NCBI GenBank assembly: GCA_005502445.1
Contig: SCPB01000001.1
Location: 62,001 to 126,000 of the forward strand
Direction of reading: 5' to 3'
DNA: 64,000 nt
DNA from: Microbacteriaceae bacterium X2B
GTDB lineage: Bacteria; Actinomycetota; Actinomycetes; Actinomycetales; Microbacteriaceae
Positions within the stretch are counted from its first letter, which is position 1. The number at the start of each line of letters is the position of its first letter. Under the pieces are notes generated by a model. It was given only the letters and a program-made list of their open reading frames with translations. It ran no database searches and was not told where the DNA came from. Positions 46,648 to 61,904 of the stretch are shown here, in pieces. The position numbers and the translations under genes were made by a program.

Positions 46648-46659
46648 CGTGTCAGCAAT

Positions 46660-46702
46660 GTCAAGGCGCCTGAGCTGGTAGTGCGGGCTCAGGCGCCTTG
46701 AC
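46660..46702 (+). terminator. Terminator after the 46408 gene
   Basis: GTCAAGGCGCCTGAGC pairs perfectly with GCTCAGGCGCCTTGAC around an 11-base loop. Confidence 0.85.
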
Positions 46703-46742
46703 TATGTATCGACCAAGTCTCATATTGTGGGGGAGAATGACG

Positions 46743-47240: not shown

Positions 47241-48106
47241 TGGCGTCAGGTGTGGCTACAGGACTGAGTCCGTCGGACACTCAGATAGCGAGGGTGACGC
47301 TCGGGAAGATGATCCAGCAACTGCGCAAGAGCCGCAGGGTTACGAGCCAGGCTCTTGGGAAGGCTCTTGGCTGGAGTCAGTCAAAGATGTCCAAGGTCGA
47401 GAACGGTGTCGCAGCCATCAAGGAGCACGAGCTTCTAAGGATCGCTGAGATCTTGGGTGCGACGGATCGGCAGATTCAGCAGCTCCAGTTCCGGTTCGGT
47501 CTCACCGAGCTGCCGCCGTTGTCTACGCGGGCATTGGTTGCCCATGGTGTTGATAGGCATCAGAGAGCGATCGCCGAGTATGAGCGGTTAGCTCGAGTAA
47601 TTGATGTGTACTGCCACTCGGTTGTGCCGGGACTCCTGCAGACCCCGGACTACACCCGAGCGTTACTGGGTCACTTCGGTGTTCCCGAGCGAGCCATCGA
47701 CCCTGCAGTGGAGGAGCGTCTGATACGGCAAAGAATTCTTGCGCATGCCGCACGCGAGTTTCACTTTCTACTCAGTGAGACCGTCCTGTATTCACTCGTG
47801 GGTTCGCGCGACGTGCAGGTAGAGCAACTTGAAGCGCTGAAGCTTCGCGCTTTGACGAAGAGCATCCGGATCGGAATCATCCCTACAGCCAGTGGCACTC
47901 CGCCAAGGGCGCTGTCCGAGTTCACTGTGTTCAATTCTGATTTCGTGACTTCCGAGACGGTGGTGATCGAGCAGCATTTCTCCGATCCTGTTGACGTCAA
48001 CGTATTTGTGTCCCTTCATGCTGATTTGAGTAGTCGCGCACACTATGGGCAAGAGTCTGCAGTCCTTATCGATCGCGCCATGTCGGCGCTTATGTCGCAG
48101 GAATGA
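47240..48106 (+). CDS. XRE-type regulator with DUF5753 domain
   Basis: A 288-residue protein. Residues about 20-75 are an XRE helix-turn-helix (LGKMIQQLRKSRRVTSQALG, KALGWSQSKMSKVENGVAAI), followed by the DUF5753 region (YCHSVVPGLLQTPDYTRALL, RIGIIPTASGTPPRALSEFT). Scr1-like proteins of this family regulate partner small proteins and have been linked to development and possibly toxin-antitoxin action. The GTG start overlaps the last base of the DUF6879 stop codon, indicating tight coupling. Confidence 0.88.
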   Translation: MASGVATGLSPSDTQIARVTLGKMIQQLRKSRRVTSQALGKALGWSQSKMSKVENGVAAIKEHELLRIAEILGATDRQIQQLQFRFGLTELPPLSTRALVAHGVDRHQRAIAEYERLARVIDVYCHSVVPGLLQTPDYTRALLGHFGVPERAIDPAVEERLIRQRILAHAAREFHFLLSETVLYSLVGSRDVQVEQLEALKLRALTKSIRIGIIPTASGTPPRALSEFTVFNSDFVTSETVVIEQHFSDPVDVNVFVSLHADLSSRAHYGQESAVLIDRAMSALMSQE

Positions 48107-48212
48107 ACGATCTCAGTCCGGATAAGTGTTGTCTTATGAACATCATTGCCGAACAGAATATTGACGCCTGACGCGCTCAGTTCATACTCATCCCCACGCT
48201 TCCTCGTCCGAG

Positions 48213-48258
48213 AGCGGCTCAAGCAGAGGAACCCAGTTCCGGGTTCGTCGGCCGCTCG
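48213..48258 (+). ncRNA. Structured leader, copy 1
   Basis: GCGGCTCAAGCAGAGGAACC, then a CAGTT loop region and CCGGGTTCGTCGGCCGCTCG, folds into an outer AGCGGC/GCCGCT stem and an inner GAACC/GGTTC stem. It ends just before the GAGGAGGAGG ribosome site of the ribbon-helix-helix gene. A second copy occurs at 48703. Confidence 0.55.
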
Positions 48259-48281
48259 AAGAGGAGGAGGTGAGGAGCATC

Positions 48282-48614
48282 ATGACCGATGCCACCCCGC
48301 CGGCCGGAGCGTATCCGGCAACCAGTCAGATGCGGACACTTGCTGTGCGCATCACCGACGACCTGCGTGCGCAGCTGGACGTCATCGCCCAGCTCAACGA
48401 CCGCAGTGTCACCGAGGAGATCCGCATTGCCCTCGAGGCCTGGGTTGTGACCAGCAAGTCCGACCCGAAGGTGCTCGCCAGGGCAGAGACGGTTCGGGCG
48501 GAGATCGAGCGCGAAGCGAAGACCAAGCAGAGCGCGATCGAGGCCATCTTCGGCGGTGAACCAGCTCCCACAAGCGCGCCGCGCGCCAAGGGAAAGTCGT
48601 CTACTGAAGAGTGA
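48282..48614 (+). CDS. Ribbon-helix-helix (Arc-type) DNA-binding protein
   Basis: A 110-residue protein with a ribbon-helix-helix fold at about residues 17-60 (MRTLAVRITDDLRAQLDVIA, NDRSVTEEIRIALEAWVV), resembling antitoxin-type or plasmid-control repressors. The C-terminal part is charged and Ala/Ser/Pro-rich. The ATG at 48282 follows TGAGGAGC at suitable spacing and is chosen over the in-frame GTG at 48270. It may regulate the element; no toxin gene is adjacent. Confidence 0.7.
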   Translation: MTDATPPAGAYPATSQMRTLAVRITDDLRAQLDVIAQLNDRSVTEEIRIALEAWVVTSKSDPKVLARAETVRAEIEREAKTKQSAIEAIFGGEPAPTSAPRAKGKSSTEE

Positions 48615-48702
48615 CTGGCATCGGCGGTCGCCTTCGGGGTTGAGCGCGTCCTGCGCTCTCCCGGGGCGGCCGTCGCCAACACTTCGCCCTCGTTGGTGCT
48701 GT

Positions 48703-48740
48703 GCGGCTCATCAGAGAACCACCCGGTTCCCGGCCGCTCG
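48703..48740 (+). ncRNA. Structured leader, copy 2
   Basis: GCGGCTCATCAGAGAACCAC followed by CCGGTTCCCGGCCGCTCG forms the same two-stem structure as the element at 48213 and again abuts a ribosome site (AAGGAGG), here of the DUF3846-like gene. Confidence 0.55.
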
Positions 48741-48758
48741 CATCAAGGAGGTTGAGTC

Positions 48759-49283
48759 ATGACGAAAGGCATTGTCGTGCCACACGACGCAGAAACGGCG
48801 CTCGAAGTTCGCGAGTTCTCGGAGTTCGGCGACTACCAGAAGGCCGTCGACGGATGGATCGAAGCAGTCGACATCCCGTCGCTCGGAGTCATGGTGTTTG
48901 TCAACGAGGAAGGTCTGCTGAAGCACCTGCCCCTGAACTCGCGCATGACCTTCCTGTGGTGGTTCCACGTTCCGGAAGCCCGGCAGCGCGCGATGCTGGT
49001 CGGCAACGCCGTCATCGTCGGCGCGCCTGACGAGGATGGCAACACGACCGACGTCCCCCAGACGGTCATCTCGCTGCTCATGGAGACCCAGGTCTACAGG
49101 GTCGAAGTGCAGGTGATCGGCGAGACCGAGTGGCACCGGAACGCTGCGAAGTACACCGACTACTGGGAGGCAGTCATCTGGGCGATGCTCCTGCTGGAGC
49201 GGTGGGCGCTGGCCACGGATGTTCGCGTCGTGCCCGTGCTCGACCAGGACATGTTGCCCATCTTCAGAGAGGACACTCTCTGA
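48759..49283 (+). CDS. DUF3846-like element protein
   Basis: A 174-residue soluble protein. The N-terminal half, EFSEFGDYQKAVDGWIEAVD, then GVMVFVNEEGLLKHLPLNSR and GNAVIVGAPDEDGNT, fits DUF3846, a family frequent on actinobacterial plasmids and integrative elements. The C-terminal part is less recognisable. It has an AAGGAGG ribosome site placed right after a structured leader and is followed by a long hairpin terminator. The role is unknown. Confidence 0.65.
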   Translation: MTKGIVVPHDAETALEVREFSEFGDYQKAVDGWIEAVDIPSLGVMVFVNEEGLLKHLPLNSRMTFLWWFHVPEARQRAMLVGNAVIVGAPDEDGNTTDVPQTVISLLMETQVYRVEVQVIGETEWHRNAAKYTDYWEAVIWAMLLLERWALATDVRVVPVLDQDMLPIFREDTL

Positions 49284-49293
49284 AGCATGCGCG

Positions 49294-49336
49294 GGTCGGC
49301 TGGACTTGAGTGCTCTCCACGCTCGTCCGGCCGACC
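49294..49336 (+). terminator. Hairpin terminator before the defence operon
   Basis: GGTCGGCTGGAC pairs with GTCCGGCCGACC (one G-T pair) across a 19-base loop. It isolates the helicase/RM operon from the upstream genes. Confidence 0.65.
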
Positions 49337-49554
49337 ATGCGCCCCGTAACCCTCGGGAATGGCCTCGAGGGTTCTTGACCGTTCTCGAGGTTTCCTTCAT
49401 AGTCAGCAGCATCGATGCCATCTCCGGCATCCAAGTTCAGACATGTCGACGCGTTCGTAATCCCCCGATAGGGACGGCGGCGCGGATAGCCTGAACCCAA
49501 CCAGATCAGCACGAATCAAGGCAATAGCGACCACGAGAGGAGCGAACCCAAGAG

Positions 49555-49644
49555 ATGACCCACCAAGCACCCACAACACCAGCGGATCCTTTTCGCCCTC
49601 AAACGACCCCGCTCGCCACACCTCTTCAGGAGTCCATGTCGTGA
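49555..49644 (+). CDS. Short ORF coupled to the SNF2 helicase gene
   Basis: A 29-codon frame starting MTHQAPTTPADPFRPQTTPL ends in TGA that overlaps the GTG start of the helicase (GTGA). Such an overlap usually means translational coupling, so the frame may be a leader peptide that loads ribosomes for the helicase. Upstream is only a modest ribosome site (GAGAGGAG, somewhat far). The Pro/Thr-rich sequence has no recognisable fold. Confidence 0.4.
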   Translation: MTHQAPTTPADPFRPQTTPLATPLQESMS

Positions 49645-52535
49645 GCGGCCTGTCGAACCATCAGGCCAAGTACTTCGCGCACGAGCTTCAGCGCAGCTAC
49701 GCCAACGACCACGTCGGCAAGCTCGCAGGGCTGCTTTTCGATGCTCAGGTTGAACCGAAGCCACACCAGATCGACGCGGCTCTCTTCGCCCTGCAAACGC
49801 CGTTCTTGCCGGGCGTGATTCTCGCTGACGAGGTCGGTCTCGGAAAGACGATCGAAGCAGGAATCGTCATCAGTCAGTACTGGGCCGAACGGCGCCGCGA
49901 CATTCTCGTTATCGCACCGTCGAGTCTTCGCCAGCAGTGGCAGCAAGAACTCAGCGAGAAGTTCCTGATCCCGTCGAGCATTCTCGAACCCCGCACGAGA
50001 GACTCGATGCTGGCCTCGACTGGTCGCCGTCAACCACTGGTGTTGATTTGCTCCTACGAGTTCGCGCTCCGACACGAGGCGTCCCTCTTGCGATCGTGGG
50101 ATCTGGTGATCGCTGATGAAGCACACCGCCTGCGCAATTTCTGGACGGGTAAGGGGAAGGCTTCCGATGCGGTCTCGCATATCGTTCGAGGCGCGCACAA
50201 GACGGTGCTGCTGACTGCCACCCCGCTCCAGAACAAGCTCGAAGAGCTATACGGGCTGGTGTCGGTGTTCGACCCCGACTACTTCTACTCGCTCGACGCC
50301 TTCCGTGAGCGTTACGTCAAGCACCGTGACATCAGCGGTGACGATCTCGCCGATCGTGTCGCTGTCATCTCGAAACGCACGCTTCGCCGGGATGCTGACA
50401 AGTACATTCACTTCACCAAGCGTCTGCCGCTCACGGTGGAGTTCACCCCGAGCGAGGATGAGCGCAGGCTCTACAACCTGGTCAACGAGTATCTGCAGCG
50501 CCCGATTCTGTATGCCTTCGCCGGGAGTCAACGACACCTGTCTGCGCTGATCATTCGCAAGCGACTTGGCTCATCTACGTACGCGGTCGCGAGTACTTTG
50601 GAGAACATCGCCAACCGACTGGCAGCCGAGATCGAAGCCGGCCAACGACGGGATGCTCGCGGGGGAATCATCTCGATCGACTTCGACGGTGATGAACTGA
50701 CCAGCGAAGAACTTGAGGAAGCCGAGGTCGCAGACCTCAACGCGGCAGCCGCAGAGGCCACACAAGACGACGTGGACGAAGTGGCACGGATCGCGGCCAT
50801 GAAGCAAGAGGTCGCAGAGCTGCGAGAGTTCGCTGCTCTCGCCCGATCGATCACCGTCAATCAGAAGGCCGTGAAGCTCGTCGAGGCGATTGGGCTTGGG
50901 TTCGAACGGCTCCGTCAGCTTGGCGCTCCCGAGAAGGCGATCATCTTCACTGACTCAACCAAGACACAGGAGTACATCGCCCGCTCACTCACCGAAGCAG
51001 GGCTCGGCGACGGGCTCGTATTGTTCAACGGGTCCAACACCTCGCCCGAGCAGAACGCGATATACCAGGCGTGGCTCGAGAAGAACAAAGACGGCGACCT
51101 GATCACGGGCATCCCTGCCGTCGACCGTCGCAAGGCGCTCGTGGAGTACTTCCGGCTCGAGGGCACGATCATGATCGCCACCGAAGCAGCTGCGGAAGGC
51201 ATCAACCTCCAGTTCTGCTCGATGGTGGTCAACTACGACCTGCCGTGGAACCCGCAACGGGTCGAGCAACGCATCGGACGAGCTCACCGATTCGGCCAGA
51301 AGTACGACGTCGTCGTGGTCAACCTCTCCAACAAGGGCAACCTCGCCGAACAACGCATCCTTCAACTGCTCGATCAGAAGTTCCACCTGTTCTCCAGCGT
51401 CTTCGGAGCCTCCGACGAAGTGCTGGGTGCGATCGAAGACGGACTCGATTTTGAGAAGACCATCAGCAACATCCTGAACTCCAGTCGCACCGACGAGGAG
51501 ATCGACATAGCCTTCAAGTTGCTGGAAGAGCAGTACGCCACAGAGATCTCCGCCGAGATGGCGAGTGCCAAAGCGAAAGTCTTCGACAACCTCGACCCAC
51601 ACGTGCAAGACCGCCTCAAGGCGTACGACACGCAGTCGGGGGAGGTGCTGAACAAGTTCGAGCGTCTTCTGCTCGGCGTCACTCGACACGAGCTTGCCGA
51701 TCACGCAAAGTTCGAAGGTGACGGCAGGCACTTCCGTCTGCACACTTCGCCAGTCCCCGAGGCCCCGACCGGACGCTACTTCTTCAAGTCGCAGCCGCTG
51801 GAGAACGCTCACCAGTACCGCTACTCCAGCCCGCTCGCGCAACACGTGCTCGAGTCGGCGAAGGCCAGCTCGACACCAGCGTTGGAACTGACCTTCTCCC
51901 TTGGCGCCTCGGAACGGGTGACGACGGCGGCACGAGCACTCGAGGGTCAATCGGGCGAGATGATCGTCAACGTCATCACGTACTCGATGAAGGCGCGCGA
52001 TGAAGATGTGTCCGAGTCCTACATGCTCGCCGGCGCTCTGACCGATGTCGGTGCCTGGCTAGACGATGAATACGTCGCCGACATCCTGGACCTGGCCTGC
52101 GTCGACGTCAGTAGCCAGCTCATCGAGGTCGATGAACAAAAGTTCGAGCCTCACTTCGCAGCTCACCAGTCCGAGCTGGAGAAGGAAGTCCAGGGTCGCA
52201 ACTCGCGCTACTACGACCAGCAGGAGGAACTGCTCTACCGCAACCAACAGGACCGCAAGGCCGAGCATGAGGGGCAGATCCGCGAGTACCGCGCCAAAGA
52301 GAAGGAAGCCCGAAAGGCCGCACGGCAGACGGACGACCCGATGGAACAGCTGCGGTACAAGAAGGAAGCACGCCGCTGGGAGCAGAAGGCCGAAGATGCC
52401 GACGAGGAGTTCCGCGAACTGAAGAAGCAGCTGCGTCAAGAAGCGGACAAGTACTTGGAACTGATCGAACAATCACTGCAGGGGACACAGCACGTAGAAC
52501 GGCTCTTCACGATCCGGTGGAAGGTCACTTCCTAG
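49641..52535 (+). CDS. SNF2-family helicase of the defence operon (DrmD/RapA-like)
   Basis: A 964-residue superfamily 2 translocase. Walker A is ADEVGLGKTIEAG (62-74), Walker B DEAHRLRN (159-166), motif III LLTATPLQNKLEELYGLV, and the second RecA domain has ATEAAAEGINLQFCSMVVNY (about 513) and QRVEQRIGRAHRFGQ. An acidic insertion lies near 350-375, and the last 110 residues are a long charged coiled coil. It most resembles RapA-like SNF2 helicases such as DrmD of DISARM systems. It is the first large gene of an operon with type III Mod, Res and an OLD-like protein. The GTG start is chosen from the overlap with the short ORF. Confidence 0.88.
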   Translation: MSGLSNHQAKYFAHELQRSYANDHVGKLAGLLFDAQVEPKPHQIDAALFALQTPFLPGVILADEVGLGKTIEAGIVISQYWAERRRDILVIAPSSLRQQWQQELSEKFLIPSSILEPRTRDSMLASTGRRQPLVLICSYEFALRHEASLLRSWDLVIADEAHRLRNFWTGKGKASDAVSHIVRGAHKTVLLTATPLQNKLEELYGLVSVFDPDYFYSLDAFRERYVKHRDISGDDLADRVAVISKRTLRRDADKYIHFTKRLPLTVEFTPSEDERRLYNLVNEYLQRPILYAFAGSQRHLSALIIRKRLGSSTYAVASTLENIANRLAAEIEAGQRRDARGGIISIDFDGDELTSEELEEAEVADLNAAAAEATQDDVDEVARIAAMKQEVAELREFAALARSITVNQKAVKLVEAIGLGFERLRQLGAPEKAIIFTDSTKTQEYIARSLTEAGLGDGLVLFNGSNTSPEQNAIYQAWLEKNKDGDLITGIPAVDRRKALVEYFRLEGTIMIATEAAAEGINLQFCSMVVNYDLPWNPQRVEQRIGRAHRFGQKYDVVVVNLSNKGNLAEQRILQLLDQKFHLFSSVFGASDEVLGAIEDGLDFEKTISNILNSSRTDEEIDIAFKLLEEQYATEISAEMASAKAKVFDNLDPHVQDRLKAYDTQSGEVLNKFERLLLGVTRHELADHAKFEGDGRHFRLHTSPVPEAPTGRYFFKSQPLENAHQYRYSSPLAQHVLESAKASSTPALELTFSLGASERVTTAARALEGQSGEMIVNVITYSMKARDEDVSESYMLAGALTDVGAWLDDEYVADILDLACVDVSSQLIEVDEQKFEPHFAAHQSELEKEVQGRNSRYYDQQEELLYRNQQDRKAEHEGQIREYRAKEKEARKAARQTDDPMEQLRYKKEARRWEQKAEDADEEFRELKKQLRQEADKYLELIEQSLQGTQHVERLFTIRWKVTS

Positions 52536-52579
52536 CCAGAGATCGGCCCCCGTGTTAAGATAATGAAGGAAAATTACTT

Positions 52580-54547
52580 ATGACTGACGATATCTACGAA
52601 ACACCATCCGCGACCCCTGACTTCAAGACCGAGCTCGCAGTGAAATTGGCAGAGCTCGTGCCGGAGGCGGTCGCGGACGGCAAGGTGGACGTCGTCAAGC
52701 TCCAGGAACTTCTTGCGTCGGATGCCGCTGACGGCAACGAGCGATTCGGGTTGTTCTGGCCCGGCAAGAAGCGCGCACTGCGTGCTGCGCAGGAGCCGAC
52801 TTCGGCCACCCTAAAGCCTGACTTTGAGAACTCGAAGAACTGGGACACGACGAAGAACGTCTTTATCGAGGGGGACAACCTCGAAGTCCTAAAGATTTTG
52901 CAGAAGCACTATCACGGCAGGATCAAACTGATCTACATTGATCCGCCCTACAACACCGGCAAAGATTTCGTCTACCCGGACAACTACAAGGAGGGTCTCG
53001 ATACCTACCTCGAGTGGACTCGCCAGGTAAACGAGGAAGGCAAGAAGGTATCAACCAATAGTGAGACCGAGGGTCGATATCACTCCAATTGGCTCAACAT
53101 GATGTACCCACGCCTGAAGTTGGCGAGGAATCTCCTTACCCATGACGGCGTCATATTTATCTCCATCGATGACCACGAGATTGACAATCTGACTCGGCTC
53201 GGGAAGGAGATCTTCGGTGAGGACAATCTGATCGCGACGCTCCCGAGGGTCACAAAGCGAGCCGGTAAGAGCGGTGACTTGATCGCCTTCAACCATGATT
53301 ATGTTTTGGCATTTTCACGCAGCGCGAGCGTCATGCTTAATCGGTTCTCGCACACCGATGAGGGCTTCAGGTATTCTGACGAGTTTGAATCAGAGCGTGG
53401 AAAGTACAAACTTAACCAGACGCTTGACTATGGTTCGATTCAGTACTCGAGATCGCTCGACTATGAGATCGAGTTGGCTGGGCACGTATTTCGCCCTGGG
53501 GGAGCAAGTCGCGAACAGATGTTGGCAAGGCAGGCTCGGAATCCTAGGACCGACTACTGCTGGAGGTGGTCGCGCGATCTTTTCGAGTTCGGATTGAGTA
53601 ACGGGTTCGTTGTCGTTAAGGAGGGGCGCGCCGGCCCTCGTATCTATACAAAGACTTACCAAAACGCGACCATTAAGGAGATTGGTGGCCGTTATGAGGT
53701 CGTACTCCAGGATCGCACTAAGGCCTTTACCACTCTTGACTTTCTTGACAACCGCTACTCAAATGACAACGCGAAAAAGGGACTCAGTTCTCTTCTCGAA
53801 ATTAGTGCGTTCGATTACACAAAGCCAGTTGACCTGGTCAAGATGATCGTTGCGTTGTCGACGAGCCCCCACGGGAATGATGTGGTACTCGATTTCTTCT
53901 CGGGCTCGGCCACAACAGCGCATGCCGTGATGCAGTTGAATGCCGAGGACGGAGGTAACCGGCGACACATCCAAGTCCAGCTGCCCGAGCCCACACCAGA
54001 GGGGTCGGAGGCGCGGGCCTCAGGCTACTCCAGCATCTCGAACATTTCTCGCAAGCGCATTGACCTCGCGGGCGAGTCGATTCAAGGTATGCGCCAAGCT
54101 CAGCTTGCTCACGATGCGGATGCTTTGGACATTGGGTTCAGGTCGTACTCCCTTACCGACAGCAATTTCAGTAAGTGGCGTATTGGAAGTGAGGTTGACG
54201 GCGGCAAGCTCGAACAGCATTTGCTGGACCTTCGAGAGAGCGCTTCCGACGACGCTAGCGAAGACTCGTTGCTTGTGGAACTCCTGCTCAAGCAGGGCTA
54301 CTCCCTTACCGAGAAGATCTCATCCACCGAAGTGGACGGACTTGAACTTCGTTCGGTTGGCGGTGGTGTAGTCCTCGCTTACCTTAGCGAGGCGGTAAAG
54401 CCCTCTCTCGAGCAGCTTCGTGCTGTAGTCGAACAGGATCCTGCACGCATCATCGTTCTTGAAGATGCTTTCCATGGTGACGATGAACTGAAGACCAACC
54501 TGGCCCAGCTCTGCAAGAGCAAAGGCATTGAACTCTGGACCGCGTGA
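52580..54547 (+). CDS. mod: Type III restriction-modification DNA methyltransferase (Mod)
   Basis: A 655-residue beta-class adenine methyltransferase. Motif IV IDPPYNTGKDFVYPDNY lies at about 120-136 and motif I VLDFFSGSATTAHAVMQL near 435-452, the order of type III Mod proteins; NVFIEGDNLEVLKILQKHYH precedes the catalytic site. The region between the motifs (about 230-400) should hold the target-recognition domain, and its DNA is clearly poorer in GC than both ends, suggesting exchange of specificity. The stop overlaps the res ATG (ATGA). A possible TAAGAT -10 element lies just upstream. Confidence 0.93.
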   Translation: MTDDIYETPSATPDFKTELAVKLAELVPEAVADGKVDVVKLQELLASDAADGNERFGLFWPGKKRALRAAQEPTSATLKPDFENSKNWDTTKNVFIEGDNLEVLKILQKHYHGRIKLIYIDPPYNTGKDFVYPDNYKEGLDTYLEWTRQVNEEGKKVSTNSETEGRYHSNWLNMMYPRLKLARNLLTHDGVIFISIDDHEIDNLTRLGKEIFGEDNLIATLPRVTKRAGKSGDLIAFNHDYVLAFSRSASVMLNRFSHTDEGFRYSDEFESERGKYKLNQTLDYGSIQYSRSLDYEIELAGHVFRPGGASREQMLARQARNPRTDYCWRWSRDLFEFGLSNGFVVVKEGRAGPRIYTKTYQNATIKEIGGRYEVVLQDRTKAFTTLDFLDNRYSNDNAKKGLSSLLEISAFDYTKPVDLVKMIVALSTSPHGNDVVLDFFSGSATTAHAVMQLNAEDGGNRRHIQVQLPEPTPEGSEARASGYSSISNISRKRIDLAGESIQGMRQAQLAHDADALDIGFRSYSLTDSNFSKWRIGSEVDGGKLEQHLLDLRESASDDASEDSLLVELLLKQGYSLTEKISSTEVDGLELRSVGGGVVLAYLSEAVKPSLEQLRAVVEQDPARIIVLEDAFHGDDELKTNLAQLCKSKGIELWTA

Positions 54548-57534
54548 TGGCAGGTTCTGGATTCCAGTTCGACGCTTCTCAGCAATATCAGCTTGATGCG
54601 ATCAACTCAGTGGTCGGTCTCTTTGACGGACAACCGAAGGACGCGGACAAGCTCGTCACGACTCTGCGCAGTGCCGCTGCCTTGACTGAAGATGCACAGG
54701 AGGCCCTCGATCTTGATCTCACCCAGGAGGTGGGGGCGATCGGTAACAATCTGGTTCTCGACTCTGGACTTGTCTTGGCGAACCTTCAGGCTGTCCAGGA
54801 TCAGAACGGCCTAGAAGTCTCGAAGGCTCTCTTCGACGCAGAAGCGTTCGACTTCGACATTGAGATGGAAACGGGGACGGGCAAGACCTACGTCTATCTG
54901 CGCACTATGTTCGAACTCGCGGCCCGCTACAACTTCACGAAATTCATCATCCTCGTGCCGAGCGTCGCGATTCGTGAAGGTGTCAGTACGAGCATCCGCT
55001 TGATGCGGGATCACTTCCGTGAGCTCTACCCGGCCCACCCTTTCGACGCTTCGGTCTACTCCGGCAAGACTGCCGAGGAAGTCCAGTCCTTCGCGACTTC
55101 CACAAACGTCCAGATCCTCATCATGACCATCGACTCGATTCGTGGTGACGCGAACTCCCGAATCATTCACCAGACGCGCGACAAGCTCAACGGCCTTCGC
55201 CCGATCGACTACTTGAAAGCGACCAGACCAGTCGTGATCATGGACGAGCCGCAAAACATGGAGTCATTGCTCAGCCAATCGGCACTGGCAGAACTCAATC
55301 CGTCCTTCACGCTTCGGTACTCGGCGACACACAAGAAGCAACGCAACGTGGTGTACCGGCTCGACCCGGTTGACGCGCACGATCTCGGTTTGGTGAAGCA
55401 GATTGTCGTTGCCGATGTGCAGCAGCAAGGTGCCGACGCTACTCCCTACATGAAGCTCATCTCGGTGAAGCGAGAGCCGCAGTGGACTGCCCGGCTTGAA
55501 CTATCCGTCCGTTCCGCGAGCGGCCAGCTTGAGCGCCGCCAGGTGAACGTTCGCCCGAATCAGGAACTCTCCGACGAGCGGCTGACCAACAACCCCGCAT
55601 ACGAAGGCATCTGGGTCACCGAGATGACCCTTGGCTTTGACGGGGCACCTGCGTCAGTCGAGCTGAATCTGCACGGTCATCTCTATGAGGGCGAAACGAT
55701 TGGCGGAGCCAGCGGCGCCATCTACAAGGAGATGATCCGCGAAACCATCAAGGAGCACTTCCGCAAAGAAGCCCAGCTTCGAGAGCGAGGCATCAAGGTG
55801 CTGAGTCTCTTCTTCGTGGACAAGGTCGCCAGCTACCTCGGCGACGGCAGCAGCAACGACGACGCCAACGGTGACTTCGTCCGATGGTTCGACGAGGTGT
55901 TCGCAGAAGAGCGGGCCAAGTCGCCGCGCTGGCAGGAGCTACTGCCGCAGGACCCGCACGAACTTCGACGCGCCTACTTCTCACAGATCAAGCGTGGCAA
56001 GACCACGATCATGCAGGACAGCTCCGGCGCTACGAAGGCAGACGATGATGCCTATGAATTGATCATGCAAGACAAGGAGCGGCTACTCGACGAGAGCGAG
56101 CCTGTCCGTTTCATCTTTAGCCATTCAGCTCTTCGCGAAGGATGGGACAACCCCAACGTCTTCCAGATATGCACCCTGCGAGAGATGGGAGCAGAGGTCG
56201 AGCGACGCCAGACCATCGGACGGGGTCTCCGCCTTCCCGTCACGCAGACCCCGACGGGGTACCAGCGCGTCGGTGATCGTGGCATCGCCACTCTGACGGT
56301 GATCGCCAACGAGTCGTACCAGCAGTTCGCGAAGAGCCTGCAGAATGAGTACCGGGCAGCGGGCGTTGAGATTGGCCGAGTCCGCGTCAACGAGTTCGCC
56401 AAGATCGCCGCTCGAGACGAGGCCGGCACCGTCACTGACAACCAACTCGGATTCGCGAAGTCCGAAGAGATCCACCGTCACCTTACGGAGACCGGCTTCC
56501 TGGTGGACGGCATGGTCACCTCGAAGTTCCTTCCCGGGACGCTCGGCTTCACCTTGAGCCTTCCGGAGTACTTGAAGCCATACGAAGACGAGGTCATCGA
56601 GCTCGTTCAGCGCGCCAGCCTTGAGCGATACGTCAAGCCCAAGAGCAACCGGCAACCCCGTGCGCTCAACAAGGCGCTCTACCTGACTCCAGAGTTTGAG
56701 GAGTTCTGGGAAGCCATCAGCCGCAAGACCACCTACCGAGTGTCGGTCGTGCGAGAAGACCTGATCGCGGCATCCGTCAAGGCCCTGCAGGACGCCCCAC
56801 GCATCGAACCCCTTCGGATCCAGGTGACACGTGCCGGCGTGAAGGTGCTTCGCGGTGGCGCCAAGGGCGAAGAGCTGGGCGTCCGGTCAACTGACCTCAA
56901 GGGCGGCTACGACCTGCCTGACATCATCACCGAACTCCAAAGCGCGACGTCACTAACCCGCAAGACGATCGTGGACATCCTGATCGGCAGCGGCCGGTTG
57001 GAAGAGTTCATCGGAAACCCGAACGACTTCATTGCGATGGCAAAGCGGGCCCTCCAGTCCGAGCTGGCCAAGATTGTTGTCGAGGGCATCCAGTACGAGA
57101 AGATCGCGGGGTCGGTCTACGAACTTCGGGAACTTCAGAGGGACGGCGCCGAGGAGAAGGACCGATTCCTCGACCAGATGTACAAGGTGCAGAACGAGCA
57201 GAAGACCGACTTCGACTATGTCGTCTACGACTCGGACGTCGAGCTTGAGTTTGCGAAGAAGCTCGACACACGCGAGGACATCAAGCTATTCATGAAGCTG
57301 CCCAGCAAGTTCAAGATCCCAACACCGGTGGGGGACTACAACCCGGACTGGGCGATCATCAAGCACGAGGAAGGCGAAGACCGGATCTACATGATCCGCG
57401 AAACCAAGTCGACGCTCGATGACGCGAAGCTTCGTCCGACCGAGCTTGCGAAGATCAAGTCGGCGAAGAAACACTTCGCGGCGATCGGCATTACTGACTA
57501 CGACCGGTCGGTGCCGGGGAATTGGAATTTATAG
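54544..57534 (+). CDS. res: Type III restriction enzyme, helicase-nuclease subunit (Res)
   Basis: A 996-residue subunit that translocates on and cuts DNA with unmodified sites. Superfamily 2 motifs are DIEMETGTGKTYVYLR (Walker A, about 108-115), VVIMDEPQNMES (DEPQ, about 233), TLRYSATHKK and SALREGWDNPNVFQIC with QTIGRGLRLPV. The C-terminal PD-(D/E)xK nuclease shows YNPDWAII (about 931) and MIRETKST (about 950). It overlaps mod by four bases and the OLD-like gene by one base (TAGTG). The length is normal for Res. Confidence 0.95.
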   Translation: MMAGSGFQFDASQQYQLDAINSVVGLFDGQPKDADKLVTTLRSAAALTEDAQEALDLDLTQEVGAIGNNLVLDSGLVLANLQAVQDQNGLEVSKALFDAEAFDFDIEMETGTGKTYVYLRTMFELAARYNFTKFIILVPSVAIREGVSTSIRLMRDHFRELYPAHPFDASVYSGKTAEEVQSFATSTNVQILIMTIDSIRGDANSRIIHQTRDKLNGLRPIDYLKATRPVVIMDEPQNMESLLSQSALAELNPSFTLRYSATHKKQRNVVYRLDPVDAHDLGLVKQIVVADVQQQGADATPYMKLISVKREPQWTARLELSVRSASGQLERRQVNVRPNQELSDERLTNNPAYEGIWVTEMTLGFDGAPASVELNLHGHLYEGETIGGASGAIYKEMIRETIKEHFRKEAQLRERGIKVLSLFFVDKVASYLGDGSSNDDANGDFVRWFDEVFAEERAKSPRWQELLPQDPHELRRAYFSQIKRGKTTIMQDSSGATKADDDAYELIMQDKERLLDESEPVRFIFSHSALREGWDNPNVFQICTLREMGAEVERRQTIGRGLRLPVTQTPTGYQRVGDRGIATLTVIANESYQQFAKSLQNEYRAAGVEIGRVRVNEFAKIAARDEAGTVTDNQLGFAKSEEIHRHLTETGFLVDGMVTSKFLPGTLGFTLSLPEYLKPYEDEVIELVQRASLERYVKPKSNRQPRALNKALYLTPEFEEFWEAISRKTTYRVSVVREDLIAASVKALQDAPRIEPLRIQVTRAGVKVLRGGAKGEELGVRSTDLKGGYDLPDIITELQSATSLTRKTIVDILIGSGRLEEFIGNPNDFIAMAKRALQSELAKIVVEGIQYEKIAGSVYELRELQRDGAEEKDRFLDQMYKVQNEQKTDFDYVVYDSDVELEFAKKLDTREDIKLFMKLPSKFKIPTPVGDYNPDWAIIKHEEGEDRIYMIRETKSTLDDAKLRPTELAKIKSAKKHFAAIGITDYDRSVPGNWNL

Positions 57535-59222
57535 TGCGTGCTGTCGAAATCCGCATTCACAACTTTCGCAGCATCCATGACGCGACGATCCAGCTTGAGC
57601 CCCTGTCGCTCGTGGCCGGAGCGAACAACTCCGGCAAGAGCAACATCGTCGATGCTGTCCGTCTGTTTTACGGCGATCTGAAGTGGGATGAGGAGCGTGA
57701 CAAGCCGAAGGTCGCGCCCGAAGATGCCGAAGCATGGGTTGAAGTTGAGTTCAGGCCAACTGATGACGAGTTGGCGCAACTCAAAGACGACTACAGAAGT
57801 CCGAAGGGAACTTTCCGGGTCCGCAACTACGTAAGTCCTTCGAATGGCCCGGACGGGAAGGTGCGCTCCGGGTACTACGCCTACGAGAACGACAAGTTGT
57901 CCGAGAACCTTTTCTATGGAGCGAAAAACGTTGGCTCGGGAAAAGTCGGGCACATCGTCTATATCCCGGCTGTCAGCAAGATCGACGAGACCACCAAGTT
58001 GACCGGACCTTCGGCGCTGCGAGAACTCGTCGCTGAGGTCCTCAACAAGGTAGTCGCCAACAGCCCTGCCTACAAGAATCTGACTGAGGCCTTCGGAACT
58101 TTTGAGGGTCAGATCAAGGCTCAGGCTAGCGCTGACGGTCAGTCGATCGGGCTGCTTGAGGAGGAGGTCACGGGGGAGATCGCGAGCTGGGACGCTTCAT
58201 TCTCCTTAGCGGTGCAGAGCATTCAGCCCGAGGAAATTCTGAAGACACTGATCAAACCGCAATTCATTGACGAGACGCATGGCGGCGAAGTAGACCAGGC
58301 AAGGTTTGGTGCCGGGTTCCAGCGTCACTTGATCTACACGCTCATCAAGTTGGCCGCAAAGCACGCGAATCCACCGAAGGCCTCGTCGGGTGAGAAGAAG
58401 GAGTTTGCTCCCCACCTCACTTGGATTCTCTTCGAGGAGCCGGAGGCATTTCTTCACCCATCACAAGAGGAGGTGCTGCATGACAGCCTCTTGAAGCTAG
58501 TGAAGGACGGAACGACCCAGGTCTTCCTTACGACACACAGCTCACGTTTCGTCAGTCGATCGATGGACGACCTGACGAGATTGGTTCGACTTCGCCGAGA
58601 CTCCGGTGTCACGTCTGCGTACCAGGTAACGCAAGGGGAACTTGATCAACTCTTCGCAGATGCACTCGTTGCCGATGACAGCATTTTCCCGCATGGCACT
58701 AGCGCCGCAGAGGTCAACAAAGCCGCGATGATGGCATCTTTGAAGACGGAGCTTTGGATGCAAGCGACACGGACTACTGCCTTCTTCAGTAATCGGGTCA
58801 TCCTTGTCGAAGGGCCTAGCGAGACTGCGATCTACAGTTACCTGGCTACTCGTGGGCTGATGGACCCGCCGCTTCGCGGGCTTGCCGTTATCGACTGCAT
58901 GGGCAAGTACAACATTCATCGTTTTGTCGCCATCCTCGGTGCTTTCGGCGTCGATCACTCCGTGCTCTACGACGGGGACAACGGGGGTGCAAAGGATTCA
59001 GAGGTGAGTAAGGCGATTCGTGAAGCTGCCGCTTCGTTCACGAAGCGAATCACTCGTTTCGAAGGAGATCTGGAATCCGAGCTGGGCATCGCACCGTTGC
59101 CTCGCGATCAATTCCATCGGAAGCCGCAGTATGTTCTCTATCACCTCGAGGCCGGGCTGGTTGACCAGGCAAGAATCGATGACCTCAAGAAGGAGTTCGT
59201 CGAACTGGCGACCGCGACGTAG
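57534..59222 (+). CDS. OLD-like AAA ATPase with TOPRIM nuclease domain
   Basis: A 562-residue protein. The ATPase begins VEIRIHNFRSIHDATIQLEP, with Walker A VAGANNSGKSNIVDAVR (about 27-35) and Walker B WILFEEPEAFLHPSQEE (about 297-306) followed by VFLTTHSSRFV. The C-terminal TOPRIM part has FFSNRVILVEGPSETAIY (Glu near 425) and DHSVLYDGDNGG (about 480). This is the layout of OLD-family nucleases, several of which act in phage defence. The GTG at 57534, overlapping the res stop, is chosen over a TTG upstream because the ATPase N-terminus then begins directly. Confidence 0.88.
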   Translation: MRAVEIRIHNFRSIHDATIQLEPLSLVAGANNSGKSNIVDAVRLFYGDLKWDEERDKPKVAPEDAEAWVEVEFRPTDDELAQLKDDYRSPKGTFRVRNYVSPSNGPDGKVRSGYYAYENDKLSENLFYGAKNVGSGKVGHIVYIPAVSKIDETTKLTGPSALRELVAEVLNKVVANSPAYKNLTEAFGTFEGQIKAQASADGQSIGLLEEEVTGEIASWDASFSLAVQSIQPEEILKTLIKPQFIDETHGGEVDQARFGAGFQRHLIYTLIKLAAKHANPPKASSGEKKEFAPHLTWILFEEPEAFLHPSQEEVLHDSLLKLVKDGTTQVFLTTHSSRFVSRSMDDLTRLVRLRRDSGVTSAYQVTQGELDQLFADALVADDSIFPHGTSAAEVNKAAMMASLKTELWMQATRTTAFFSNRVILVEGPSETAIYSYLATRGLMDPPLRGLAVIDCMGKYNIHRFVAILGAFGVDHSVLYDGDNGGAKDSEVSKAIREAAASFTKRITRFEGDLESELGIAPLPRDQFHRKPQYVLYHLEAGLVDQARIDDLKKEFVELATAT

Positions 59223-59247
59223 CTCGAGTTGACGAGCGTCCGATTGA

Positions 59248-59688
59248 CTACTGGTTCTTTGCCCGACGATTCGGTGCAACGGCTGGCCGGATCTTCACGC
59301 CTCTCGCGCGCAAGGCCTTGAGAATCGTGTGATTGTCGAAGCCAAGGCGCTTGCCGATCGCGACGCTCGAGAGACCTTGCTCGTACAACTGAACAGAGGT
59401 GCCTATCTGGGTCTCAGTCATCCCTCGCGAGGTGTCGATGCCATGCTCTGTAAGCATCCGTGCAGCTGTTGTGCGCGATATCTTGAACTCACGGGCGACG
59501 GCCCGGATGTTGCGGGAAACCAGATAGCGGCTGATGAGAGCTTCAGTTTCGACTGTTCGAAGCTGACGTGCTCGACCTCTGTTGCCCGGGCTTGCATTCT
59601 TGCGACCATTGCCTATCGAGCGGAAGAGTAGCTCTTGGGGTGTAACGATCCCCGGTGAGGGGTTCGAGTAAACCTGTAGCAGGGGCAC
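59248..59688 (-). CDS. Paralogous HTH protein A at the cassette border
   Basis: A 146-residue protein with two helix-turn-helix units: ALISRYLVSRNIRAVAREFK, ISRTTAARML, and SVQLYEQGLSSVAIGKRLGF, DNHTILKALRARGV. Both look like the DNA-binding ends of resolvases or IS transposases, but no catalytic domain is present. Its first codons (PLLQVYSNPSPG) lie in a 74-bp sequence repeated at the start of the paralogous gene at 61905. The GTG start sits in a stretch resembling a tRNA 3' end. It converges on the OLD-like gene. Confidence 0.7.
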   Translation of the reverse strand: MPLLQVYSNPSPGIVTPQELLFRSIGNGRKNASPGNRGRARQLRTVETEALISRYLVSRNIRAVAREFKISRTTAARMLTEHGIDTSRGMTETQIGTSVQLYEQGLSSVAIGKRLGFDNHTILKALRARGVKIRPAVAPNRRAKNQ

Positions 59689-59689
59689 C
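59616..59689. repeat. 74-bp direct repeat, left copy (tRNA-3'-end-like)
   Basis: This 74-bp stretch matches 62282-62355 at 66 positions by direct comparison. It contains GGGGTTCGAGT and AGGGGCACC, both also present in the 3' end of tRNA-Arg at 37510-37532, separated by AAACCTGTAGC. It encodes the N-terminus of the HTH gene on the minus strand. Confidence 0.8.
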
Positions 59690-59773
59690 GACCGGAATAT
59701 CCGACCGGAATATCTGAACGGGTTTTCATCAGCAGTGTTGTACGCCTTTCGGCGCCGCTCGGGATCGCATTTG

Positions 59774-61126
59774 TCAGAACATGGAGCCGAGGTCGGAGCC
59801 GACGGAAGGATAGGTGGCCGTCACGGACTTCAGCTGTCGGGTGGTGAGTCCGAGCTTGATGGCGAGGCCAAACGTGTTGATCACTTCTGAATAGCCTGGG
59901 CCGAGTAGGTGCGCCCCGAGAATCAAGTCGGTCGCTGGATCCACGATCACCTTCGTGGCGGCGGTAGTCTCACCGATTCGGTAATTGCTGTACCAGCCGC
60001 TGGTGTCGTGGTAGCGCACAGAAATCTCTCGACCATCGCGTGCAGCTTCTTGTTCGAGCATCCCGACCCGGTTTAGTTCTGGAATCGTAAACACCGTCGA
60101 GGGCACGCCGGCGTAGTCGGGCACGGTCTCGATGCCTTTGAGCATGTTGGATGCGGCGACCTTACCTTCGACGACGGCCACCGGCGTCAGGCGTTCGCCC
60201 GGGGTGCCCGCCGCGTCACCTGCTGCATAGACGTACGGATTGCTACGGCTCTGCAAGTGCCCGAAGACGTCAATGCCCTGTGGCCCGTGCGCGATATCGG
60301 CTGCCTCCAGATCGAGGCCGTCGAAGTTGGGTACGCGGCCCGCTCCGTGCACCACAAGGTCGGCGTCGATGTTGGACGTCGCGCGGTCCCGCTCGATTGC
60401 AACGTGAAAGCCCGTGGAGGTGTGCGTGACTGCGCTCACGGAGGTGCTGTGGTGCACTCGTATTCCAGCCTGTTCGCTGCGGCGCACAAGCAGATCTACG
60501 AGGTCCGGGTCGAATGCGCGCAGCGGCTTTGTGCCGTGGTCGATGATCACGCACTCCACGCCAGCGCGCGCTGCGATGTGCGCCAACTCGAAGGAAACAA
60601 ACCCGCCGCCGACGAACACGATTCTTCTGGGCAGCGCTTCGAGGTTCAGGAATTCGGTGCTGTCGACCAGAAGCTCCTGGCCGGAGAACTCGAGCGGCCG
60701 AGGGCGGGCTCCGGTGGCGATGAGAAATCGTGCTGCGGAATGCTGTTCGCCGTTGATGTCGACGTGATGGCGGCTGACGAATCGGGCATCGCCGTGGAAC
60801 GTGGACACACCGTTCCGTTTCAGCGTGGACTCCATGGCGCCTGGAATATCGTCGGTGAAGCCGTGCTTGTGCCGCATGAGGGCGGGCCAATCGAGTGTGA
60901 GGCCATTCTGGTTAACGCCTTTGCCGTGCATGAGGCGTGCATCGTCGATGATTTCGGCGCCTCGGCGGAGAATTTTCTTGGGGTCGCAGCCGCGAAGAGC
61001 GCAGGTGCCTCCGTAGGGAAGGGTGTCGACGATGCCGACTTTCCAGCCTTGGGACGCGCAGCGGTTGGCCGCAGTGGTCCCTGCCATCCCGGCACCGATG
61101 ACGAACAGGTCGTACTCCGCGTTCAC
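59774..61126 (-). CDS. FAD-dependent pyridine nucleotide-disulfide oxidoreductase
   Basis: A 450-residue enzyme of the glutathione reductase/mercuric reductase superfamily. The FAD site is DLFVIGAGMAGTTAANRCA, the redox-active pair is GGTCALRGCDPKK (Cys42 and Cys47), and the NAD(P) site is RIVFVGGGFVSFELAHIA; NPYVYAAGDAAG binds FAD. It lacks the N-terminal metal-binding domain and the C-terminal CysCys of true MerA, so mercury reduction is unproven. The ATG overlaps the stop of the thioredoxin-like gene (ATGA), making a two-gene redox operon under the MerR-type regulator. Confidence 0.88.
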   Translation of the reverse strand: MNAEYDLFVIGAGMAGTTAANRCASQGWKVGIVDTLPYGGTCALRGCDPKKILRRGAEIIDDARLMHGKGVNQNGLTLDWPALMRHKHGFTDDIPGAMESTLKRNGVSTFHGDARFVSRHHVDINGEQHSAARFLIATGARPRPLEFSGQELLVDSTEFLNLEALPRRIVFVGGGFVSFELAHIAARAGVECVIIDHGTKPLRAFDPDLVDLLVRRSEQAGIRVHHSTSVSAVTHTSTGFHVAIERDRATSNIDADLVVHGAGRVPNFDGLDLEAADIAHGPQGIDVFGHLQSRSNPYVYAAGDAAGTPGERLTPVAVVEGKVAASNMLKGIETVPDYAGVPSTVFTIPELNRVGMLEQEAARDGREISVRYHDTSGWYSNYRIGETTAATKVIVDPATDLILGAHLLGPGYSEVINTFGLAIKLGLTTRQLKSVTATYPSVGSDLGSMF

Positions 61127-61440
61127 AGTGCGACTCCATCGTGCTGTGCGGTGATCGCCATGCGCAGTTGTTCCAGAGTGGGGGCGCCAGCGCGACCTGC
61201 GGGTGTGCTGTACACACGGCAGGCCAGGCCGACGGGTGCCGACGAGTCGGCGAACGGGTCCACTCCGTCGACGAGAATGCTGGGCGAGCCGCGGAAGCCG
61301 AGCTTCTCCGCGTCATCGAACGTTTCGACGAGCCGGTGAAGAACGGTGATGTCGGGGCGTTCGGAGGCGATCGTCGCCAAGCGCTCGGCGGCGATCGACC
61401 AATTCGGGCAACCAGTGAAGTACTGCAGCGTGATCTCCAT
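61123..61440 (-). CDS. Small thioredoxin-like protein of the MerR-controlled operon
   Basis: A 105-residue protein beginning EITLQYFTGCPNWSIAAERL, with PSILVDGVDPFAD and CRVYSTPAGR, as in small thioredoxin-like proteins encoded with organomercurial or mercuric reductase-like genes. The active site is CPNW with a single Cys, so it is not a standard CxxC thioredoxin. The ATG is only about eight bases from the -10 element, so the mRNA is probably leaderless. Confidence 0.75.
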   Translation of the reverse strand: MEITLQYFTGCPNWSIAAERLATIASERPDITVLHRLVETFDDAEKLGFRGSPSILVDGVDPFADSSAPVGLACRVYSTPAGRAGAPTLEQLRMAITAQHDGVAL

Positions 61441-61447
61441 TCCCGGA

Positions 61448-61478
61448 GAATAAACCTTGTAGCGCGATGCAAGGTCAA
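61448..61478 (-). promoter_or_regulatory. MerR-type promoter with 19-bp spacer and operator dyad
   Basis: Read on the minus strand: -35 TTGACC, a 19-base spacer and -10 TTATTC. The spacer region carries the dyad ACCTTG-N10-CAAGGT. The overlong spacer with a central dyad is the hallmark of promoters that MerR regulators activate by DNA distortion. It drives the redox genes; the MerR gene reads the other way. Confidence 0.88.
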
Positions 61479-61495
61479 GTGGTGAAATGGAGCCC

Positions 61496-61900
61496 ATGAA
61501 GATCGGCGACCTGTCCAACGTCAGCGGTGTTCCCTCACAGACAATCCGTTTCTATGAGCGACGAGGACTTCTTTCGCCCTCTGCGCGTGAAGGAAATGGC
61601 TATCGCCGCTATGACCACGCGGCCGTATCGCGACTGAACTTCATTCGATCCGCGCAATCGGCGGGTCTCACCCTTGCTGAGATCGCCAGTGTGATCAACA
61701 TCCGCGACGCGGGCGAAGCGCCCTGCGCTCATGTCTCAACTCTGCTCGAGGAAAAGCTCGATGAGGTGCAGCGGCGGCAACGTGAGCTTGCTGTCTTGGA
61801 AGCTGAATTGAATCAATTGATCGCGGCGGGTCGAGACCTCGACCCGACCGACTGCGAACCGGGGGGCGTCTGCAGCGTCATCGTCTCGACGGGAGGCTGA
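61496..61900 (+). CDS. MerR-family metal- or thiol-responsive regulator
   Basis: A 134-residue activator. The N-terminal winged helix reads MKIGDLSNVSGVPSQTIRFY, ERRGLLSPSAREGNGYRRYD, followed by a long dimerisation helix (EEKLDEVQRRQRELAVLEAE). Cys77, Cys120 and Cys126 (APCAHV, TDCEPGGVCSV) resemble the three-Cys site of MerR/ZntR that binds thiophilic divalent metals. The ATG at 61496 is chosen because GGAG precedes it and the first helix then starts at once; another ATG lies three codons upstream. It diverges from the redox operon over the dyad promoter. Confidence 0.9.
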   Translation: MKIGDLSNVSGVPSQTIRFYERRGLLSPSAREGNGYRRYDHAAVSRLNFIRSAQSAGLTLAEIASVINIRDAGEAPCAHVSTLLEEKLDEVQRRQRELAVLEAELNQLIAAGRDLDPTDCEPGGVCSVIVSTGG

Positions 61901-61904
61901 CCCT

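What the first reader, a model, noticed from the sequence alone, without database searches (positions are those of the whole stretch)
49555..59222. Four-gene defence operon: SNF2 helicase, type III Mod, type III Res, OLD-like nuclease
The genes run in one direction and mod/res/OLD overlap by 1-4 bases, with 44 bases between helicase and mod. Type III restriction normally needs only Mod and Res. Adding a RapA/DrmD-like SNF2 translocase with a long C-terminal coiled coil and an OLD ATPase-TOPRIM nuclease suggests a composite system in which methylation status licenses two further effectors. It is not DISARM, since DrmA, DrmB and DrmC are absent. I know of no named system with this exact set.
Basis: partly seen in the sequence, partly recalled or inferred. 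Interest (0 to 1): 0.78.

Follow-up and report, generated by a model that had tools for sequence, protein, structure and literature searches.

The report
Three-gene restriction operon with swappable cargo
This is a bacterial restriction-modification operon of an already reported three-gene type (an extra RapA-like DNA motor plus Mod and Res) that carries an OLD nuclease as one of many exchangeable add-on genes; the interest is that the motor gene is kept while both the restriction enzyme and the add-on are swapped.

Summary
The four genes are real, intact and in one operon-like run (helicase start is 49641, not 49555). The reading "new four-gene system" is only partly right. The core, SNF2 helicase–Mod–Res, is in print: Murray et al. 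2021 (PMC8259958) reported an extra helicase/ATPase gene 5' of mod in type III systems such as Eco86II (>500 genomes, function unknown). I tested the link: the E. coli NCTC86 locus encodes a full-length homologue of the window's SNF2 (38%, 631 bits). In 64 of 73 sampled loci with room, this SNF2 sits with Mod and Res. In 248 sampled genomes of the window's order all 7 close Res relatives (61-77%) have it. OLD is not core: 1 of those 7 has it, and its nearest kin on plasmids stand alone (5 of 5 viewed). Cargo slots hold many unrelated defence-type genes; ABC/OLD cargo is scattered over the SNF2 tree. New here: SNF2 is kept while the restriction genes change. Three Res groups without a 100-bit link are interleaved on its tree, and one pair with 83% identical SNF2 has no detectable Res similarity. 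Most likely SNF2 is a general helper motor for type III restriction and OLD an autonomous back-up effector; both roles are inferred, not shown.

The parts
49555..49644 (+).
   Evidence: several relatives have a small HTH gene at this place instead
49641..52535 (+). RapA-like SNF2 translocase, 964 aa, with C-terminal alpha+beta domain and long coiled coil
52580..54547 (+). Type III Mod, beta-class amino-methyltransferase, 655 aa; residues about 201-400 hypervariable (target recognition region)
54544..57534 (+). Type III Res, SF2 helicase-like ATPase + PD-(D/E)xK endonuclease, 996 aa
57534..59222 (+). OLD nuclease (ABC ATPase + TOPRIM), 562 aa, cargo gene

Best explanation
It is a type III restriction-modification operon of the three-gene Eco86II kind (RapA-like SNF2 motor, Mod, Res) with a class-1-like OLD nuclease in the add-on slot behind res. 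Shown here: the genes, their motifs, the conserved SNF2-Mod-Res core, the hypervariable region of Mod, the exchange of Mod-Res beneath a conserved SNF2, and the changing cargo. From established type III biochemistry: Mod methylates one strand of an asymmetric site, and Mod-Res slides along DNA and cuts when it meets a second complex at an unmodified site. Inferred: SNF2 does not bind a particular Res; it works at the level of the DNA, translocating on duplex DNA and removing roadblocks (RNA polymerase, as RapA does, or phage DNA-bound proteins), so that sliding type III complexes can meet and cut in the living cell. Inferred: OLD is co-expressed but acts by itself, as a back-up nuclease for phages that survive restriction.
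For: Core: SNF2 with Mod and Res on one strand in 64 of 73 loci with at least 8 kb downstream, order SNF2-Mod-Res in 62 of 64. Order survey of 248 genomes: 7 non-self Res matches at 61-77% identity, all 7 genomes carry SNF2 at 61-80%. Link to Eco86II: NCTC86 locus is SNF2-Mod-Res; SNF2 38% over full length, 631 bits. SNF2 not tied to one Res: three Res groups (33, 24, 15 loci) without a 100-bit link; 8 changes of Res group on the SNF2 tree, least possible 2; L095/L031 SNF2 83% identical over 974 aa, Res 23.5 bits (E 0.085), Mod 26% over 378 aa, DNA similarity only over the SNF2 gene. RapA chains are the four best Foldseek hits, with 1059-1077 alignment columns (best E 3e-26). Murray et al.: extra ATPase not required for methyltransferase activity and no peptides of it in the partly purified Eco86II. 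OLD as cargo.
Against: No functional data for any window gene. The RapA likeness is loose: 15-16% identity, TM-score 0.46-0.50, rmsd 10-14 A, and RapA is not among the 50 rows of the second look. SNF2 motors have many jobs; this one could act before or after cutting or as a sensor. 9 of the 73 loci lack the pair at my size limits, and a diverged branch goes with an Eco57I-type methylase (L102, and L104 by a linked ORF), so the SNF2 family is not exclusive to type III RM. In 296 genomes of the phylum SNF2 (7 genomes, own included, E<=1e-60) and this Res (12, own included, E<=1e-40) share only the own genome and G076, since most SNF2 there go with another Res group or none. The 1-base Res-OLD overlap, also in L151, suggests tight co-expression, which a purely autonomous OLD would not need. 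OLD in L206 sits in a run with an N6 methylase, so some OLD-methylase relation cannot be excluded.
Confidence: 0.6

Rival explanations
1. One reading: a four-component system in which methylation status, read by Mod, licenses SNF2 and OLD as two further effectors.
For: All four genes overlap or nearly touch and run in one direction; L151 (G320) keeps the same four genes at 80/58/77/83% identity.
Against: OLD in 1 of 7 close trios; 11 ABC/OLD cargo rows need 11 changes on the SNF2 tree, no fewer than shuffles (mean 10.4); viewed OLD kin on plasmids stand alone.
Confidence: 0.08
2. OLD (and other cargo) are guards of the restriction system: they fire when a phage inhibits or evades Mod-Res, as PARIS does on sensing Ocr.
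For: 49 of 64 trio loci hold at least one extra co-directional ORF of 150 aa or more inside the operon or directly after res. Identified cargo in these and related loci includes Abi_2, AIPR, Fic, SIR2, GmrSD, RT, Schlafen AlbA and AAA + S8 peptidase (annotated). Four loci pair the ABC ATPase with a DUF4276 protein (that DUF4276 is TOPRIM-like is recalled, not tested). OLD-type back-up effectors and PARIS/Ocr are discussed for BREX in PMC12839542 (passages).
Against: No trigger known; viewed relatives of this OLD are found without RM genes.
Confidence: 0.3
3. SNF2 is itself an independent sensor/effector motor (compare the HamB and Hna helicases, abstracts) that merely shares an operon with type III RM.
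For: It is kept while Mod-Res is replaced; no peptides of it were found in partly purified Eco86II.
Against: It was seen without the Mod-Res pair in only 9 of 73 loci; no nuclease domain in it by Pfam; all 7 close Res relatives keep it.
Confidence: 0.2
4. The gathering is hitchhiking only: a mobile element collects defence genes, and SNF2, RM and OLD do not interact.
For: The operon lies in a lower-GC stretch (0.53-0.61 against about 0.67) and downstream of a recombinase-like ORF at tRNA-Arg and conjugation-like ORFs.
Against: Would not predict the order SNF2-Mod-Res in 62 of 64 loci from many phyla.
Confidence: 0.15

Closest known systems
Three-gene type III RM, Eco86II (E. coli NCTC86) and BspHIV, Murray et al. 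2021 (PMC8259958; abstract, passages, sections 4, 17, 18 read)
   Same: SF2 helicase-like ATPase gene directly 5' of mod and res; NCTC86 SNF2 is homologous over its full length (38%); helicase without nuclease motif. The locus was matched by strain and gene order; the paper gives NCTC86 one putative type III system.
   Different: Window Res shows no significant BLAST similarity to the NCTC86 Res (20.8 bits, E 0.51), Mod 27% over the core; no OLD at the NCTC86 locus; Eco86II makes m4C, the window's base is unknown.
EcoP15I-like type III RM
   Same: Mod matches solved type III Mods 6k0w (E 7e-68) and EcoP15I 4zcf (E 2e-50); Res architecture.
   Different: Extra SNF2 and OLD genes.
DrmD of DISARM (NF038318)
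   Same: Best NCBIfam family for SNF2, residues 31-675, 574 bits.
   Different: Under the curated cut-off of 950; C-terminal third not matched; no PF09369 domain in the genome.
RapA (RNA polymerase recycling SNF2 motor)
   Same: Top four Foldseek matches of the model; NF003426 157 bits.
   Different: Cut-off 576 not met; TM-score only 0.46-0.50; the window protein has a long coiled coil near its end.
OLD nucleases, class 1 (Old/TsOLD); Gabija GajA; PARIS AriAB
   Same: PADLOC Old 172 bits over 8-521, GajA up to 97; 6p74, an OLD-family nuclease, is the best PDB sequence hit; ATPase + TOPRIM on one chain.
   Different: Encoded as the last gene of an RM operon; no GajB or separate AriB beside it.
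Helicase-(DUF4391)-Mod-Res type III loci of actinobacteria
   Same: Type III mod/res with an upstream SF2 helicase; 16 of the 20 SNF2-less Res loci examined have one.
   Different: Another helicase (1061-1278 aa where uncut); DUF4391 matched by BLAST in 4 of 20, the query locus included.

Membership tests
Type III restriction-modification | Mod: beta-class amino-methyltransferase with DPPY and AdoMet motifs | tested here: met
Type III restriction-modification | Res: SF2 ATPase plus PD-(D/E)xK nuclease | tested here: met
Type III restriction-modification | ATP-dependent cutting near an asymmetric site methylated on one strand | not testable with these tools
   needs methylome and biochemistry
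Three-gene type III RM (Eco86II kind) | SF2 helicase gene immediately 5' of mod, homologous to that at the NCTC86 locus | tested here: met
Three-gene type III RM (Eco86II kind) | helicase carries no endonuclease motif | tested here: met
   Pfam shows helicase/ATPase domains only
Three-gene type III RM (Eco86II kind) | m4C modification | not testable with these tools
   Mod is near solved adenine-type Mods, but base choice cannot be read from sequence
DISARM | DrmB (MZB/DUF1998, by recall) with DrmA and DrmC | tested here: not met
   no PF09369 match in the genome; DrmA and DrmC not sought genome-wide; none among the four neighbouring ORFs scanned
DISARM | DrmD over NCBIfam cut-off | tested here: not met
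   574 against 950 bits
BREX | PglZ | tested here: not met
   no PF08665 match in the genome
Hma / DUF499 BR systems | operon of HmaA helicase, MTase and DUF499 ATPase | tested here: not met
   none of the four operon proteins has a DUF499 hit; SNF2 hits HmaA at 186 bits against DrmD 577; DUF499 not sought genome-wide
Gabija | GajB UvrD-like helicase next to GajA | tested here: not met
   the other neighbour of OLD is a 146-aa ORF on the opposite strand with only sub-cut-off HTH hits
PARIS | separate AriA ATPase and AriB TOPRIM | tested here: not met
   one chain holds both; fused AriAB exist per PMC10568477 (passage)
OLD nuclease | ABC ATPase with Walker A/B plus TOPRIM with E and DxD | tested here: met
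Class 1 OLD | single gene outside an operon | tested here: not met
   overlaps res by 1 base; but 5 of 5 viewed plasmid relatives (35-38%) have no annotated RM gene in the stretch viewed (up to 9-10 kb on each side)
MADS | eight-gene mad1-8 set (by recall) | not tested
   only noted that PGAP calls a small HTH before an E. coli relative MAD1

The most novel reading that the evidence does not exclude
The SNF2 gene is the constant part of a modular defence locus: a universal helper motor that works with any type III restriction enzyme. Whole Mod-Res pairs are replaced beneath it (83% identical SNF2 with no detectable Res similarity in Marinobacter/Marinobacterium), while add-on slots inside and behind the operon take up interchangeable effectors such as OLD. 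That would make it a chassis for restriction rather than an accessory of one enzyme.
Probability: 0.45. Interest if true: 0.68.

Novelty: new variant of a known kind. Interest (0 to 1): 0.5.

Why it matters
Murray et al. left the extra ATPase of type III systems without a function. The survey here gives a testable reason for its spread: it goes with at least three distinct Res groups, so its job is probably generic (DNA-level) and not enzyme-specific, and pairs such as L095/L031 and the E. coli variants with different cargo are ready-made comparisons. It also suggests that a family-by-family annotation, which gives this stretch as 'type III RM + DrmD-like + Old', misses a recurrent unit and its cargo slots.

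Tried and rejected
Considered and rejected: DISARM, BREX, Hma, Gabija and PARIS (see membership test). An upstream HTH gene as in relatives was looked for at 49401-49640 in three frames; none seen. Literature: 10 searches. Papers opened: PMC8259958 (abstract, passages, sections 4, 17, 18), PMC12839542 (abstract, passages, section 28), PMC12255303 and PMC12458937 (abstract, passages), PMC8565338, PMC2292703, PMC10568477, PMC12278908 (passages only). In what I saw of these, only PMC8259958 describes the helicase-Mod-Res trio, and none its cargo. The last search, for MADS, listed no paper with the term 'methylation-associated defense system'. The library holds open-licence papers only, so a description elsewhere of the cargo slots or of SNF2 promiscuity is not excluded; REBASE could not be searched. 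In the second structural look RapA was not among the 50 rows shown; only residues 21-641 were well covered, so no claim on the fold of the C-terminal part is made from that call. A near search of plasmids with window 45000-64000 found only 53-142 base scraps in 3 records.

Genes in unannotated loci are ORFs, not curated genes; the extra-ORF count includes a recombinase (L019) and ORFs without any Pfam hit. Accessory ORFs were typed by Pfam for selected representatives only. Plasmid gene tables are incomplete. The SNF2 tree is a quick tree; long branches L084 and L050 and some joins are unsure. Rows are not independent (L189, L191, L192 are near-identical E. coli loci). Dropped before counts: L018 (SNF2 in two pieces) and the short loci L004-L010 from the survey; from 73 Res rows, L082 (single) and two with SNF2 under 850 aa from the 70-row tree. 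At 60 bits instead of 100, Res groups A and C join (48, 24, 1), while B stays apart; Mods of all loci are one group at 100 bits. Three SNF2-less Res genomes of the phylum search (G039, G098, G173) were not examined further.

Full report
WHAT IS THERE. Window 49641-59222 (+) encodes a RapA/DrmD-like SNF2 helicase, type III Mod, type III Res and an OLD nuclease, all open and with their catalytic motifs. The operon lies in a stretch of lower GC (0.53-0.61, against about 0.67 at 40-44 kb).

THE CORE IS A KNOWN KIND. Murray et al. 2021 (PMC8259958) described type III systems with an extra helicase-like ATPase gene 5' of mod (Eco86II of E. coli NCTC86, BspHIV), in more than 500 genomes, not required for methyltransferase activity and without peptides in partly purified Eco86II; function unknown. 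The NCTC86 record shows SNF2-related protein, methyltransferase and DEAD/DEAH helicase in a row, and its SNF2 aligns with the window's over the full length (38%, 631 bits). So the helicase-Mod-Res trio is not new.

HOW FIRM IS THE TRIO. Of the 9 others, L021 and L096 hold Mod or Res pieces under my size limits and L083 a Mod without Res, L102 an Eco57I-type methylase, L089 an SbcCD-like pair; in L049, L080, L086 and L088 neither was labelled. In reverse, in 248 genomes of the window's order, 20 others have a Res match at E<=1e-60: 7 at 61-77% identity and 13 at 35-41%. All 7 of the first set carry the SNF2 (61-80%), none of the 13 does at E<=1e-60. In one of the 7 (G463) SNF2 and Res lie on different contigs, each broken within Mod; in another (G524) the order is Mod-Res-SNF2. 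Three further genomes match SNF2 over about residues 33-631 only; two of these loci (L159, L161) also hold Mod and Res, one (L160) does not. Of the 13, 11 have another large SF2 helicase upstream of mod, so 19 of the 21 loci, own included, have one or the other extra helicase. Against a tight bond: in 296 genomes of the phylum, 7 have SNF2 and 12 this Res at the limits set (own included), and only the own genome and G076 have both; G131 and G185 carry their SNF2 with the other Res group B (L099, L100).

SNF2 IS KEPT WHILE THE RESTRICTION ENZYME CHANGES. The Res proteins fall into three groups (A 33, B 24, C 15, the window in C) without a 100-bit BLAST link, plus one single; at 60 bits A and C join. 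On a tree of 70 SNF2 proteins the group label needs 8 changes where 2 would do; it is clustered (shuffled mean 30.7) but repeatedly exchanged. The clearest case: Marinobacter L095 and Marinobacterium L031 have SNF2 proteins 83% identical over 974 aa, Mods 26% over 378 aa, and Res with 23.5 bits (E 0.085); DNA similarity spans the SNF2 gene and nothing else. E. coli itself has two Res groups with related SNF2 (A in L188, L189, L191, L192; B in L187, L190).

WITHIN THE WINDOW'S CLADE (8 relatives, each against the window) SNF2 is 60-80% identical and Res 60-78%, while Mod drops to 8-40% over residues 201-400 against 70-96% over residues 51-200 and 34-82% over 401-650: the presumed target-recognition region differs in each of the 8 comparisons, as expected for type III systems under pressure to change specificity.

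OLD IS CARGO. In 248 genomes of the order only G320 besides the window's own has this OLD at E<=1e-10 (83%), again directly after Res with a one-base overlap. In 386 genomes of the phylum 7 others match at E<=1e-12, of which 2 over the full length (38-40%). At the place behind res the other six close relatives have: a 140-aa N-terminal remnant of an ABC ATPase (G463), a reverse transcriptase (G535), an HD-domain protein (G478), a 524-aa ORF without Pfam hit (G490), nothing within 400 bases (G347), or another gene order (G524); Kocuria rhizophila L019 has a serine recombinase. Of the 64 trio loci, 35 have at least one extra ORF of 150 aa or more inside the operon, 14 only after it, 15 none. ABC/OLD-type ATPases form the largest cargo cluster (11 ORFs; the 10 besides the window's all have ABC-type Pfam hits) and, with L151 and without the short locus L027, occur in 11 of the 64; on the SNF2 tree these 11 rows need 11 changes (shuffled mean 10.4), so they came and went independently. 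Not all cargo is so loose: AIPR 7 rows and 4 changes, Abi_2 4 and 2, the SbcCD-like pair 3 and 1. ATPase and TOPRIM on one chain were seen in the window, L151 and L095 only; four loci have an ATPase followed by a DUF4276 protein. Other cargo: Schlafen AlbA, AIPR, Abi_2, SbcCD-like pair, RhuM, GmrSD, Fic, BRO-N, DUF2130, YhcG nuclease, SIR2, McrBC, PLD, protein kinase, AAA + S8 peptidase.

MECHANISM. Shown: gene content, motifs, order, exchange patterns. Established for type III enzymes: Mod2Res, one-strand methylation, sliding to meet a second complex (PMC8259958). Inferred for SNF2: because it accompanies Res groups that are not detectably similar, and no peptides of it were found with Eco86II, a fixed Res contact is unlikely; its AlphaFold model (pLDDT 83) matches RapA best, though loosely (TM 0.46-0.50), so I favour a duplex-DNA motor that clears roadblocks for sliding type III complexes. 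Inferred for OLD: co-expressed, autonomous back-up nuclease; a guard role is the main rival.

VERDICT. Observation confirmed; interpretation partly supported; new variant of a known kind. The new content is the promiscuity of the SNF2 gene and the cargo slots, which I did not see in the papers opened (searches named in Tried and rejected).

Noticed in passing
window 37441-45012: tRNA-Arg (cct) 37458-37532 overlaps the end of a large serine-recombinase-like ORF (37441-39333, -), followed by ORFs that look like a relaxation protein and a coupling ATPase (names by reading the translation, not by a family search): the operon probably rides on an integrative mobile element.
   Followed up: partly
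window 59774-62357: Next to the operon: a flavoprotein-disulphide-reductase-like ORF (59774-61126, -; mercuric-reductase-like by recall) and a MerR-like ORF (61487-61900, +; by recall), flanked by two ORFs of 146 and 150 aa that resemble each other by eye.
   Followed up: no
window 44404-45012: A 202-aa ORF with an ADPPW motif, MT-A70-methylase-like by recall, on the other strand upstream of the operon.
   Followed up: no
L158:12048-13670: Reverse transcriptase (RVT_1) directly after res in a close relative (G535): an RT in the slot that holds OLD in the window.
   Followed up: partly
L154:4199-4615: 140-aa N-terminal remnant of an ABC ATPase starting at the res stop in G463: decayed cargo at the same junction.
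   Followed up: yes
L162-L170, L175-L181: Another type III arrangement in actinobacteria: about 1080-aa SF2 helicase, small gene (DUF4391 in some), Mod, in some a Schlafen AlbA gene, Res.
   Followed up: partly
L187-L192: Within E. coli the same SNF2-Mod-Res core carries different cargo: none, Abi family + hypothetical, AAA ATPase + S8 peptidase; GmrSD-type in STEC309.
   Followed up: partly
L188:11808-12008: PGAP names the small HTH gene before SNF2 'MAD1' of MADS; similar small HTH genes overlap the SNF2 start in several relatives, suggesting a dedicated regulator that the window lacks.
   Followed up: no
L206:5836-10742: An OLD relative (40%) in a run with a RadC-like gene and an 840-aa N6 methylase with an HSDR_N-type end: a different OLD-methylase pairing.
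   Followed up: no
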